Positions 3,388-56,729 of a stretch of 64,000 bases of DNA are shown here, in pieces. Both the position numbers and the translations under genes were made by a program. The stretch spans positions 1 to 64,000 of the IMG/VR virus record IMGVR_UViG_3300047625_000012; one strand, written 5' to 3'. Source of the DNA: a virus. Numbering within the stretch: the first letter of the stretch is position 1; every line of letters starts with the position of its first letter. The notes under the pieces are model-generated. The model saw only the letters and a program-made list of their open reading frames with translations. It did not search any database and was not told the DNA's origin.

Positions 3388-5946
3388 ATGCGCAACGCCA
3401 ACTGCAAGCTTTGTAGGCTCCATGAGCATGCGACCACGGTATGCATCAACGGAGACGGCCCCACAGATGCGGACATACTCGTAGTCGGGCAGAATCCGGG
3501 ACAGCAGGAGGACCGCAAAGGCAAACCGTTCATAGGCCCCTCAGGCAAGCTCCTGAAGAGTCAGATAGCCAAAGCTGACCTGGGCGATATGCGCATCCGC
3601 TACACCAACATCGTGCGGTGTCTGAGTCCCGACAACCGCGAGCCGACCGCGAAAGAGATCAAAGCCTGCAAGCCGTATCTGGATGCGGAAATCGCACGCG
3701 TCGACCCCCGGTACATTGTGCCTCTCGGGGCTCCTGCGACGAAAGCCGTTGCCAAAGCCAAGGTGAGCACCGCGCACGGACAGATGATCGGGAAAGACGG
3801 CCGCGTCATCGTCCCCAGTTATCATCCCGCGGCAACCTTCCGTGACCCCTCCAAGCTGCAGGTAATACAGCAGGACTTCGCACGGCTGAAACGCCACATC
3901 GACGGCACTCTCGGTGCGACTCAGGACAAGTTCCAGTACCGCGTCGTCACGGACCGCAGCGTGCTCCGCGAGTTTTTCGAGGCATTCGATGCGGCTGACG
4001 AGTACGCCTACGACACCGAGACGAACGGGCTCATCCATGCAGCTCCGGGGTTTCTCGTCCGTTGTATCGCATTCGCGTTTGAGGATTGTTCGTGGGTCAT
4101 ACCGCTCGAAATGCCGGGGAGTTTATATGCGAACGATTACCCTGCCCAGGCGGAGTTTTTCCGGGTGGTGGCACGTAAAGCTGCGGATAAATGGGCCGCG
4201 GTGTTCCACGGCAAGTTTGATGCTGGAGCGATCCGCCGCGTCTACAACGTGTCGTTACCGTACCATTTTGATGCCATGCTGGCCCACTATCTCCTGGACG
4301 AAAACCAGGACCATGATCTGAAGTATGTGTCGCGTGTTGAATTGGATTGCGAGGAGTACGACTTACCGAAGGAGTTGAAGCTCAGCGACACGCCGCAGTG
4401 GTCCGTACTGATGCAGAATATCGAGAACCGCAACAAGTACTGGAAATACAACGCCCGGGACGCCTGGAACACGCTGCATCTGGTGCCACGGTTCGCAAAA
4501 CGCCTGCGCCGCAACCCCGCACTCCAGCGGCTCTTCAATGAGCTGGTAATGCCGTCCTCGTACGCACTGGAGGCGATCGAAGCCCGGGGACTGCCGCTGG
4601 ACCTCGAACAGTACCGTGCGATGGAGATCCGGGTTGAGCTGGAGCGGGATGAGTCTGCGGAGAAACTGAACAAGCTGGCGGGACGGCGTATCAACTGGAA
4701 CTCGCGCGATCAGATTGCCGTCGTGCTGTTCGATGACCTGGGCCTGCCGGTGATGGCCAGAACACCCACCGGGGCGCCGTCGACCAGTGAGGAAGCGGTT
4801 GTCGACCTCAAGGGAAAGCACCCCATCATCAACGAGCTGCTGCACTACCGTGAGCTGGATAAGATCCTGGGGACATATCTGCAGGGGTGGCGTAAAAAAG
4901 GTCACGTCATCAAAGACAAGCTGTACCTCTCTTACAAACAGCCCGGCACGGTTACGGGTCGTTTCAGCTCCCGGCTGCACCAGATACCTACGGATGGAGA
5001 AATACGCTCCATAATCGCACTCCCGGACGGCACGCCTGTCGCCAGGGACTGGCAATTCGTAGCCGCGGATCTATCACAGGCAGAGCTGCGCATTGCCGCG
5101 GAGATGTCCGGCGACCCGAGTCTGATAGAAGCGTACCGCAGCGGTCGGGACGTGCACTGGGACACGGTGCTGTACATGGTCGCCGCGGGGCACATGGATG
5201 AATACGCCGATCAGGCTTTCGACACCGCGCGGGAGATTCAAGATCAGTTCTACGTAGCCAACGCGGGGAAGTACAAAAAGAAGTTTATTGACCTGAGTAC
5301 TGCGTTGGAGGTCATGCGGATAGCTGGCGTAGATAACTGTAAAAAACTCTGGAAAGGCTGGAAAGACGCCCGCGACTGTGCAAAGCGCATTAACTTCGGT
5401 TTCCTGTACGGCATGTACGAGAACACGTTTATCGAAAAAGCGAAAGTTGACTACGATTGGATGTGCACCTGGAAGCAGGCACACGCCTATCGCCAGGGGT
5501 TCTTCGAGCAGCGCCGCGGACTGGAGCCGTGGCACGAGCGGTGCAAGAAACTCGCACGGATCGATGGGCAGGTAACCGACATGTTCGGGCGCATCCGCAG
5601 ACTCCCGGCGATCCAGAGCAGTGACAAACTGGCGAAGATGGAGGCGGAGCGCCAGGCCATCAACGCCCCGGTACAGGGCACTATCGGGGATTGGAAAGCC
5701 GCTGCCATGGTCGAAATCCACGAGACAATCGATAGCGCTAAGTATAGACTCTGCGGCGAGCACCATGACGCACTCCTCGGGCTGGTCCGCCGGGGATATG
5801 AAGACGAAGTGCTCCCCAAGGTGCGTCGGATCATGGAGCGGCCACGGTTGCTGAAAACGTTCAGAATCAGAATGAAAGTCCCGATGGTGGTCGATGTGAA
5901 TGTCGGTCCGTGGGGAAAAGGGGCGGCGTATCATGACCCAAATTAG
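3388..5946 (+). CDS. Family A DNA polymerase fused to a UDG-like Fe-S domain
   Basis: 852 residues in three parts. Residues 1-172 look like a family 4/5 uracil-DNA glycosylase: C6, C9, C78 and C94 are spaced for a 4Fe-4S cluster, with GQNPGQQED (34-42) and YHPA (145-148). Residues 185-375 are a DEDDy 3'-5' exonuclease (D209/E211, D278, Y354/D358). The rest is a family A polymerase: TGRFSS, motif A with D561, motif B R662-K666-F670-Y674, motif C H793-D794. Motifs A and B lie about 50 residues further apart than in E. coli Pol I. This is the replicative polymerase; the N-terminal domain may read or exclude uracil. Phage SPO1 is the usual example of this fusion, from memory. Confidence 0.93.
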   Translation: MRNANCKLCRLHEHATTVCINGDGPTDADILVVGQNPGQQEDRKGKPFIGPSGKLLKSQIAKADLGDMRIRYTNIVRCLSPDNREPTAKEIKACKPYLDAEIARVDPRYIVPLGAPATKAVAKAKVSTAHGQMIGKDGRVIVPSYHPAATFRDPSKLQVIQQDFARLKRHIDGTLGATQDKFQYRVVTDRSVLREFFEAFDAADEYAYDTETNGLIHAAPGFLVRCIAFAFEDCSWVIPLEMPGSLYANDYPAQAEFFRVVARKAADKWAAVFHGKFDAGAIRRVYNVSLPYHFDAMLAHYLLDENQDHDLKYVSRVELDCEEYDLPKELKLSDTPQWSVLMQNIENRNKYWKYNARDAWNTLHLVPRFAKRLRRNPALQRLFNELVMPSSYALEAIEARGLPLDLEQYRAMEIRVELERDESAEKLNKLAGRRINWNSRDQIAVVLFDDLGLPVMARTPTGAPSTSEEAVVDLKGKHPIINELLHYRELDKILGTYLQGWRKKGHVIKDKLYLSYKQPGTVTGRFSSRLHQIPTDGEIRSIIALPDGTPVARDWQFVAADLSQAELRIAAEMSGDPSLIEAYRSGRDVHWDTVLYMVAAGHMDEYADQAFDTAREIQDQFYVANAGKYKKKFIDLSTALEVMRIAGVDNCKKLWKGWKDARDCAKRINFGFLYGMYENTFIEKAKVDYDWMCTWKQAHAYRQGFFEQRRGLEPWHERCKKLARIDGQVTDMFGRIRRLPAIQSSDKLAKMEAERQAINAPVQGTIGDWKAAAMVEIHETIDSAKYRLCGEHHDALLGLVRRGYEDEVLPKVRRIMERPRLLKTFRIRMKVPMVVDVNVGPWGKGAAYHDPN

Positions 5947-55192: not shown

Positions 55193-55401
55193 GTGCTCTC
55201 GTCCACGGTCGGCACATCGCGCCACTCAACCGGGCGATCGAACGACATGCCCGGCTCGGACCGGAAATGCTCTTCCCAACGCTGCTGTAGTACCCACACG
55301 GTCGGACCTCTCCCGCTACCCGGGTCCTGCGAGTCATCCGTGCGGATCAACCAACGCAGTTGAGCCGTACACACCCACCAGCTGCGCTCATCGTCACTCA
55401 T
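55189..55401 (-). CDS. Small tryptophan-rich protein
   Basis: 70 residues from ATG 55401 (ATGA with the small terminase stop). Tryptophans spread through it (RSWWVCTAQLRWL, VWVLQQRWEEHF). May be a small folded domain; unknown. Confidence 0.5.
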   Translation of the reverse strand: MSDDERSWWVCTAQLRWLIRTDDSQDPGSGRGPTVWVLQQRWEEHFRSEPGMSFDRPVEWRDVPTVDEST

Positions 55402-56024
55402 CGTTCCCGCGGCTCCTCGGTTCGTCCTGACGGTTTCGTCTTGCCGTCAGCCTTTGGAGAAACTAACTTTACGATCGAATCAATCAGCGCGTTGCGCTCC
55501 TCCACCTTGACGGCCAGGCCGTCAGGCGTGCGCAGGTCAACTTCACTGCGTTCACCGTAGACCGCACGCAGCACCTTCTGCGCCATCCATTTGCGCGACT
55601 CAACACGCAGCCTGGAGCGCTCGAAGTGCTCGCGGTCAAACACCCGCAGGACGCCTTTCTTCGTCACCCGGTTGACGTAGTCATTGGTCGCGTTGTCCGC
55701 GATCGTGACGATGTCGCCGACCATGTGCTCGCAGCAGCTCTCCCACGCGATCCGGAAGCGTTTCTCGAAGTCCTCGTTCTGTCGTCGCCAGCGCCCCAGC
55801 ACGCGCCAGGTGGGCATGCCCGGGTCATCACGGCAGATCTGCGTAGGAGGCTCCCCGTCTGCTACCCGGTCGAGCAACGCCTCAGCTACGTCTTTCGAGA
55901 ACGTGCGCGGGCGTACGGCGGGCGGCGGTTCGGGCGCCTTCGGGCGATCTACCTTGCGGAGCTTGCGGACAACACGTTTCGGACCTCGTCTGCGCTTTTT
56001 CGTGATCTTGCGTGCGGGAGCCAA
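55398..56024 (-). CDS. Terminase small subunit (Sf6-type)
   Basis: 208 residues from TTG 56024 with AGGGGC upstream. A basic N-terminal tail is followed by a helix-turn-helix: LLDRVADGEPPTQICRD and MPTWRVLGRWRR, then ESCCEHMVGDIVTIADNAT, VESRKWMAQKVL and YGERSEVDL. This order is that of the Sf6-type small terminase, which binds the packaging site. It would recruit TerL (45024-46565). Confidence 0.75.
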   Translation of the reverse strand: MAPARKITKKRRRGPKRVVRKLRKVDRPKAPEPPPAVRPRTFSKDVAEALLDRVADGEPPTQICRDDPGMPTWRVLGRWRRQNEDFEKRFRIAWESCCEHMVGDIVTIADNATNDYVNRVTKKGVLRVFDREHFERSRLRVESRKWMAQKVLRAVYGERSEVDLRTPDGLAVKVEERNALIDSIVKLVSPKADGKTKPSGRTEEPRER

Positions 56025-56181
56025 TACGCGCCCCTACGGTTAAACGTCGCGGAAGGTACCACGGTCAAGCTGAGGTGTAAAGGCGGGGCGCGGGTTCCGC
56101 TTGCCCGGATACCGGGTGCGCCTGCCCGCACGGTTCACGCAGGCTGCAGTCACGTTCACCGCATTGCCGCGTATAGCCCCT
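56025..56181. other. Intergenic region before the small terminase
   Basis: Holds the candidate promoter listed separately. I see no tRNA, terminator or open frame with a ribosome site in it on the minus strand. Confidence 0.5.
56053..56081 (-). promoter_or_regulatory. Candidate sigma-70-like promoter for the terminase operon
   Basis: On the minus strand TTTACA (56081-56076) and TACCTT (56058-56053) are 17 bases apart, leaving about 30 bases to the TTG of the small terminase. A second possible -35 (TTGACC, 56068-56063) with TTTAAC as -10 overlaps it. The -10 is weak. It is the largest upstream gap in the leftward block, a sensible place for a late promoter. Confidence 0.4.
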
Positions 56182-56418
56182 TCAAACAAAGCAAGGAGGT
56201 TTTCCGGACCCCCAGGCAAACCGGGCCGTAACTTTGTCCAACGCCACGGCTCGGGCGATACGGCCTTCCTTCGATCGAATACGCATCAGGAGAGGATCAG
56301 GTTGTCCAGCGTCCCGATCCTGATACACGGGCAGACCAGCCGCTGGCGCCGGTAGCCGAGCCGTGCCCCGCGTCAGTTCGCGGGTCTCCCCCGATACATA
56401 CTCGAAAAAGGGCGGCAC
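56182..56418 (-). CDS. Possible small protein downstream of the tRNA-like element
   Basis: About 78 residues from GTG 56418, which lies inside the 5' half of the tRNA-like element. The protein (starting PPFFEYVSGETRELTRGTA, later LLMRIRSKEGRIARAVALDK) looks plausible. The GGGGAG in the D-loop could be its ribosome site, so translation and tRNA folding would exclude each other. Much of this region also folds well as RNA (CCCGCG/CGCGGG, 56367-56384), so it may instead be noncoding. Confidence 0.4.
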   Translation of the reverse strand: MPPFFEYVSGETRELTRGTARLPAPAAGLPVYQDRDAGQPDPLLMRIRSKEGRIARAVALDKVTARFAWGSGKPPCFV

Positions 56419-56490
56419 TCTCCCCGACTGAGCTAATCAGGCAGCGTTGCGCCTGATGTTGGATTTGAACCAGCGACCTCCCGCCTGAGC
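56404..56490 (-). tRNA. tRNA-like element with permuted halves
   Basis: On the minus strand the 3' half comes first: GGCGG (anticodon stem), GAGGTC, GCTGG-TTCAAAT-CCAAC (T arm, one C-A mismatch), ATCAGGC (acceptor), ending at 56451. Eight bases later the 5' half starts: GCCTGAT (acceptor, perfect 7 bp to ATCAGGC), TA, GCTC-AGTCGGGGA-GAGT (D arm), G, CCGCC (perfect 5 bp to GGCGG). T8, the GG of the D loop and the TTCRANY T loop are all there. Only the order is swapped, as in permuted tRNA genes of algae and archaea and in two-piece tmRNA. The anticodon lies at the ends and cannot be read; the 5' half ends CTTTTTC. No CCA is encoded. Confidence 0.6.
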
Positions 56491-56501
56491 GTGATCCTAA
56501 T

Positions 56502-56729
56502 TCAGGTCCGGTTGTCTTTCAACTGCCGGCACCATTTGCGGAAGCGTTCCGACTGGCGCGGGTCAGGCCCCATGGTGTAGCGCTGATACCCGGCGCGTTT
56601 CAACACCCTGGCCCAGCCGTCCGCGAGCGGCCCGTCGACGCACACGACATAGGGCGAGTTTGACAGTGACACGCCGTTGACCTCGATGAGGACGCCGGGA
56701 GTATGGATGAAAGTACGGTGAGCGGGCAT
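56502..56729 (-). CDS. Small hypothetical protein upstream of the tRNA-like element
   Basis: 75 residues from ATG 56729 with AGGAGG upstream, so well translated. Beta-rich first part (GVLIEVNGVSLSNSPYVVCV), helical basic end (RQSERFRKWCRQLKDNRT). Its TGA is only about 17 bases before the tRNA-like 3' half. Confidence 0.6.
   Translation of the reverse strand: MPAHRTFIHTPGVLIEVNGVSLSNSPYVVCVDGPLADGWARVLKRAGYQRYTMGPDPRQSERFRKWCRQLKDNRT

What the first reader, a model, noticed from the sequence alone, without database searches (positions are those of the whole stretch)
56404..56490. tRNA-like element with its 3' half placed before its 5' half
The two halves form all stems of a tRNA only when read in swapped order: 7-bp acceptor (GCCTGAT/ATCAGGC), 5-bp anticodon stem (CCGCC/GGCGG), complete D and T arms with consensus loop bases. 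The chance of both perfect pairings between unrelated pieces is small. Permuted tRNA genes are established in red algae and archaea, where splicing endonuclease and a ligase act on them. In bacteria the known permuted case is two-piece tmRNA, which has no proper D arm. Here the hairpin joining the acceptor strands (GCAACGCT) could be cut by RNase P and RNase Z/E, giving a nicked two-piece tRNA. The start codon of the next gene (GTG 56418) and its GGGGAG lie in the D arm, so folding could also control translation. I looked for group I intron core sequences on both sides and did not find convincing ones.
Basis: partly seen in the sequence, partly recalled or inferred. Interest (0 to 1): 0.88.

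Follow-up and report, generated by a model that had tools for sequence, protein, structure and literature searches.

The report
Phage tRNA-mimic RNA resembling Y RNA
This phage carries a small, conserved RNA element that looks like a tRNA cut at its anticodon and sealed at its amino-acid end; it is not a scrambled tRNA gene but the tRNA-mimicking part of a bacterial Y RNA, found here without the Ro60 protein that normally accompanies it.

Summary
At 56411-56485 (- strand) the 3' half of a tRNA precedes its 5' half, with every stem pairable. A covariance model built only from other sequences finds it at 57.2 bits, E 4.8e-17. The permuted-tRNA-gene reading is not supported: the acceptor is closed by an 8-nt loop, there is no CCA, the anticodon loop is not conserved, and one relative has an 11-nt T loop. 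The same permuted module is the tRNA-like module of bacterial Y RNAs (YrlA). Of viral records with such elements, 14 of 22 encode Ro60, against 0 of 20 control records. Of 80 bacterial Ro60 loci, 57 have a model hit less than 1 kb upstream, on the same strand. In the window's own phage group the element recurs in three other records, with compensated stems, and in two of them just upstream of the small terminase gene as in the window. This group has no Ro60 gene and no significant Ro-binding basal stem. Best reading: a Ro60-less, YrlA-like tRNA-mimic RNA, a new variant of a known kind. Its partner and function are inferred, not shown.

The parts
56411..56485 (-). whole permuted tRNA-like core (3' half, linker, 5' half)
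56481..56485 (-). GGCGG, 3' strand of the anticodon-type closing stem (pairs with 56411-56415)
   Evidence: 5 of 5 pairs; also 5 of 5 in L153, L154, L155 with changes GGCGG/TCGCT and GCAGG/CCTGC
56475..56480 (-). GAGGTC, variable-loop equivalent
   Evidence: R1 columns 1-6
56458..56474 (-). T arm GCTGG-TTCAAAT-CCAAC, one C-A mismatch
56451..56457 (-). ATCAGGC, acceptor 3' strand
   Evidence: 7 of 7 pairs with 56436-56442
56443..56450 (-). GCAACGCT linker closing the acceptor; no CCA
56436..56442 (-). GCCTGAT, acceptor 5' strand
56417..56433 (-). D arm GCTC-AGTCGGGGA-GAGT
56411..56415 (-). CCGCC, 5' strand of the anticodon-type closing stem
56404..56410 (-). CTTTTTC, U-run directly after the closing stem (possible 3' end; inferred)
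   Evidence: sequence
56494..56522 (-). sigma-70-like promoter TTGAAA-17-TAGGAT; would start the RNA at or within 1-2 nt of the closing stem (inferred)
   Evidence: 1 found, 0.1 expected
55398..56024 (-). terminase small subunit gene downstream of the element
   Evidence: PF20901, phrog_1482; same neighbour in G047 and G051

Best explanation
It is a phage RNA element whose fold is the tRNA-like module of bacterial Y RNAs (YrlA): T arm, acceptor helix closed by a loop, D arm, and an anticodon-type closing stem, in circularly permuted order. Unlike known Y RNAs it sits in a phage group without a Ro60 gene and shows no recognisable Ro-binding basal stem. Shown: structure, covariation, conservation in kin phages, absence of Ro60 from the records. 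Inferred: it is transcribed as a stable RNA of about 80-95 nt from the promoter abutting it, cannot be aminoacylated because the acceptor is closed, and works as a tRNA elbow mimic that engages host proteins which read that shape. For YrlA these are TruB, DusA and PNPase (PMC8394870). Most likely it occupies or redirects such a host protein during infection; I give that functional step about 0.35.
For: Model R1 from other phage elements hits the window at 57.2 bits, E 4.8e-17. R1 is a Y RNA model by association: Ro60 (PF05731) in 14 of 22 viral records with permuted elements against 0 of 20 tandem-tRNA controls (Fisher p 6.8e-6), and R1 hits within 1 kb upstream of 57 of 80 bacterial Ro60 genes. 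Best Rfam match is YrlA for the window (lowest E-value, 20.1 bits) and for relatives L153-L155 (26-33 bits, E down to 3e-4). The element recurs in G043, G047 and G051 with different but paired acceptors: GCCTGAT/ATCAGGC, CGGGCG/CGCCCG, CGCTG/CAGCG. The closing stem pairs 5 of 5 in all four (chance about 0.016 each). R1's acceptor helix covaries at all 7 pairs. No Ro60 in the window or kin. Flank pairing is not significant for the group (shuffle fractions 0.68, 0.10, 0.19, 0.18) but is for most bacterial Y RNAs.
Against: The window alone scores far below Rfam's YrlA cut-off (20.1 against 69), though Ro60-linked phage and bacterial copies I scanned also stay below it. The single window copy does not fold best as a cloverleaf. 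Records may be incomplete, so Ro60 absence is not proven. G046, a 63-kb relative, lacks the element. A host Ro60 could serve it, and a weak flank helix (GATCACGCTC/GAGTATGTATC) exists. No transcription data.
Confidence: 0.72

Rival explanations
1. A full Y RNA that uses a host-encoded Ro60, with a diverged basal stem formed by GATCACGCTC and GAGTATGTATC around the core.
For: Weak flank helix next to the closing stem; the G043 copy aligns over the whole YrlA model, including an ACUUG-type 3' strand; Ro60 with Y RNAs occurs in alphaproteobacterial contigs L234 and L235, and the nearest named phages infect Caulobacter.
Against: Flank pairing is no better than shuffles or random sites; the conserved flank motifs seen in 23 of 28 bacterial Y RNAs are absent; the promoter-like site would start the RNA inside the would-be stem.
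Confidence: 0.2
2. A cis-acting tRNA-like leader of the terminase small subunit transcript, controlling its expression or marking the packaging region.
For: Just upstream of the small terminase gene, same strand, in the window, G047 and G051.
Against: In G043 it lies about 20 kb away from that gene, on the opposite strand, while the terminase leader there lacks it; in G046 the leader has none; the other homologues of the module are Y RNAs.
Confidence: 0.13
3. A permuted tRNA gene cut in the acceptor loop and joined or left nicked at the anticodon.
For: All tRNA stems pair when the halves are swapped, and ARAGORN then calls a tRNA; the closing stem has tRNA geometry.
Against: No CCA; linkers of 8 to about 18 nt that form their own hairpins in relatives; acceptor only 5-6 bp in relatives; 11-nt T loop in G043; no consistent U33 or anticodon; the same module accompanies Ro60 elsewhere.
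Confidence: 0.06
4. A decaying relic of a Y RNA or tRNA without present function.
For: C-A mismatch in the T stem, poor folding of the window copy, T-loop duplication in G043, absence in G046 and only a partial match in G048.
Against: Acceptor and closing stems stay paired while their sequences change across four phages.
Confidence: 0.1
5. A permuted group I intron-exon arrangement making a circular tRNA.
For: The exon order would be the same (general knowledge of permuted intron-exon designs); no tool result supports it.
Against: No intron family match in the window or relatives up to E 10, 5 and 1; only 16 nt separate the element from the upstream gene.
Confidence: 0.01

Closest known systems
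Bacterial Y RNA, YrlA (Rfam RF02553), partner of Ro60/Rsr
   Same: Permuted T arm, loop-closed acceptor helix and D arm; some bacterial copies also have a 5-bp anticodon-type closing stem. Best Rfam match for the window and relatives.
   Different: No Ro60 gene in the phage group, no significant basal stem, flank motifs of bacterial Y RNAs absent; below the family cut-off.
Y RNAs carried with Ro60 by phages (mycobacteriophages per PMC12282133 citing Chen 2014; 14 viral records here)
   Same: Same core module, phage-borne.
   Different: Those records have a Ro60 gene, often have long pairing flanks, often show an anticodon-arm-like hairpin on the 5' side and may hold several copies; the window has one copy and none of these.
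Circularly permuted tRNA genes of red algae and archaea
   Same: Order of halves.
   Different: No maturation features; not a decoding tRNA.
Two-piece (permuted) tmRNA
   Same: Permuted acceptor region closed by a loop in the precursor (general knowledge).
   Different: No tmRNA match in the window, complete D arm.

Membership tests
YrlA bacterial Y RNA (RF02553) | tRNA-like module: T arm, loop-closed acceptor helix, D arm in permuted order | tested here: met
   R1 57.2 bits; YrlA positions 24-84 aligned
YrlA bacterial Y RNA (RF02553) | Rfam gathering score 69 | tested here: not met
   20.1 bits in the window, 26-33 in relatives; Ro60-linked copies scanned here also miss it
YrlA bacterial Y RNA (RF02553) | Long basal stem that binds Ro60/Rsr | tested here: not met
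   Flank pairing not above shuffles, window 0.68; motifs absent
YrlA bacterial Y RNA (RF02553) | Ro60/Rsr gene in the same genome | tested here: not met
   No TROVE in the window record or kin; host unknown
Permuted tRNA gene | Halves form a complete tRNA when swapped | tested here: met
   ARAGORN on the swapped sequence
Permuted tRNA gene | Acceptor able to mature (7-bp acceptor, CCA or trimmed linker) and a conserved anticodon loop | tested here: not met
   No CCA, 5-6 bp acceptors and structured linkers in relatives, no consistent loop
Permuted tRNA gene | Processed to a charged tRNA in vivo | not testable with these tools
   needs RNA experiments
Group I permuted intron-exon | Group I intron halves on both sides | tested here: not met
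   no match
Two-piece tmRNA | tmRNA model match | tested here: not met
   none in the window

The most novel reading that the evidence does not exclude
A Ro60-independent class of tRNA-mimic RNA, a Y RNA reduced to its tRNA-like head, that a phage group keeps as a free-standing RNA to capture or mislead host proteins that read tRNA (PNPase, modification enzymes, RNA-repair sensors or anticodon nucleases).
Probability: 0.35. Interest if true: 0.72.

Novelty: new variant of a known kind. Interest (0 to 1): 0.47.

Why it matters
Bacterial Y RNAs are understood as a Ro60-binding stem carrying a tRNA-like head. A phage group that keeps the head without Ro60 or the stem would show that the mimic has a use of its own and offers a small natural construct to find what it binds. 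The survey also indicates that tRNA finders and the current Rfam YrlA threshold miss phage and bacterial Y RNAs: 14 viral records with Ro60 carry permuted elements, and no copy scanned here reached the cut-off.

Tried and rejected
Rfam at gathering threshold: nothing in the window. Group I intron halves: none. Nucleotide similarity to known phages: none. A strict DNA pattern in viral contigs: no match. A hidden Ro60 in the window, searched with a phage TROVE profile: none. Basal Y stem: a visible helix, but not significant. Translation control of the 78-aa ORF at GTG 56418: ORF not conserved. A common promoter position: a 9-of-12 site in the window, but none at the threshold beside the G043 copy, and in G047 the best site lies over 100 nt upstream, before a hairpin with a T run; so promoter placement remains only suggestive. 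A wider terminase search for more kin returned the same eight records. The element is absent from Caulobacter phage RW.

Full report
What is there. The element lies on the - strand at 56411-56485 of a 64,182-base virus record of which the window is nearly all. Reading 5' to 3' it is GGCGG GAGGTC GCTGG TTCAAAT CCAAC ATCAGGC GCAACGCT GCCTGAT TA GCTC AGTCGGGGA GAGT G CCGCC. ARAGORN sees no tRNA in the window but does when the halves are swapped. The T-arm-then-D-arm pattern occurs once and never in shuffles. One T-stem pair is C-A. The window copy alone does not fold best into this shape (z 0.09), so the case rests on relatives.

Independent relatives. The best Rfam match by E-value, far below threshold, was YrlA, the bacterial Y RNA, whose tRNA-like domain mimics the D, T and acceptor arms (PMC8394870). 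A pattern scan of viral contigs for a T arm followed by a D arm, filtered for acceptor pairing and absence of normal tandem tRNAs, left about 22 records with permuted elements. Their acceptor helix covaries at all seven pairs. I asked whether these records encode Ro60, the Y RNA partner: 14 of 22 do, against 0 of 20 control records with ordinary tandem tRNAs (Fisher p 6.8e-6). In many of them the gene is close to the RNAs.

Model test. Model R1, built from 26 of these elements without the window, hits the window at 57.2 bits, E 4.8e-17. Run on 80 bacterial Ro60 loci found separately, R1 hits within 1 kb upstream and on the same strand in 57. R1 therefore describes the tRNA-like module of Y RNAs. 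R1 also responds to tandem tRNA arrays, but the window has no tRNAs.

The window's own group. Relatives by terminase were searched whole. G043, G047 and G051 carry the element (50.7, 56.8, 51.5 bits); G046 does not; G048 matches only the T arm and acceptor hairpin. The stems change but stay paired: acceptors GCCTGAT/ATCAGGC, CGGGCG/CGCCCG, CGCTG/CAGCG; closing stems GGCGG/CCGCC, GCAGG/CCTGC, GGCGG/TCGCT. L154 and L155 fold directly into the four-way junction. In the window, G047 and G051 the element is just upstream of the small terminase gene; in G043 it lies elsewhere. None of these records has a Ro60 gene, also not with a phage-derived profile for the window. The gene order resembles Caulobacter phage RW, which lacks the element.

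Two architectures. Ro60-linked phage Y RNAs rarely have a paired anticodon-type closing stem: none of those listed reaches 5 of 5, and several form an anticodon-arm-like hairpin on the 5' side. Many have significant flank pairing. Bacterial Y RNAs mostly have significant flank pairing and recurrent flank motifs, and some also have the closing stem. The window group has the closing stem in all four members and neither significant flank pairing nor both motifs. A similar closing stem occurs in L028, also without Ro60.

Interpretation. A decoding tRNA is unlikely: no CCA, a closed acceptor with variable and structured linkers, 5-6 bp acceptors in relatives, an 11-nt T loop in G043, no constant anticodon loop. 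A group I or tmRNA origin has no support. The GTG ORF in the D arm is not conserved. What fits is a tRNA mimic of the YrlA kind without Ro60. The promoter-like site abutting the window element suggests a free-standing RNA, but comparable sites are weak or absent in relatives, so transcription is inferred. What it binds is inferred from YrlA, which is modified by TruB and DusA and whose tRNA-like domain binds PNPase (PMC8394870).

Limits. Records may be incomplete; hosts are unknown; the group is small; no RNA data. Some window-group numbers, such as flank significance, come from simple shuffles.

Noticed in passing
L041, L058, L061, L074, L084, L095, L112 (viral contigs): Phages with Ro60 genes carry two Y-RNA-like elements each close to the Ro60 gene; several have a 5' hairpin with a tRNA-type anticodon loop (such as CTTGTAA, CTTTTAA, CTTGGGA).
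   Followed up: partly
L028:9218-9295 (+); L077 has the same core: Permuted tRNA-like element with a paired anticodon-type stem GCTGG/CCAGC and a 3-5 nt acceptor loop, in two large records with tRNAs and no Ro60.
   Followed up: partly
L156:1480-1592 (+), record G048: T arm plus acceptor hairpin followed by a different hairpin, all enclosed by a GGGGGU/ACCCCC stem (z -2.2): perhaps a diverged Y-RNA-like RNA in a kin phage.
   Followed up: partly
window 56038-56060 (-): Block GGTACCTTCCGCGACGTTTAACC just before the small terminase gene is conserved in kin phages (L237-L240); possible promoter or packaging site.
   Followed up: no
window 56284-56330 (-): Hairpin-like repeat with ATCAGG and CCTGAT between the element and the terminase gene; these words also occur in the element's acceptor stem.
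   Followed up: no
window 3388-5946 (+): Uracil-DNA glycosylase domain fused to a family A DNA polymerase in one 852-aa protein.
   Followed up: no
L155:1501-1530 (record G043): T loop enlarged to 11 nt by a tandem AATC duplication.
   Followed up: partly
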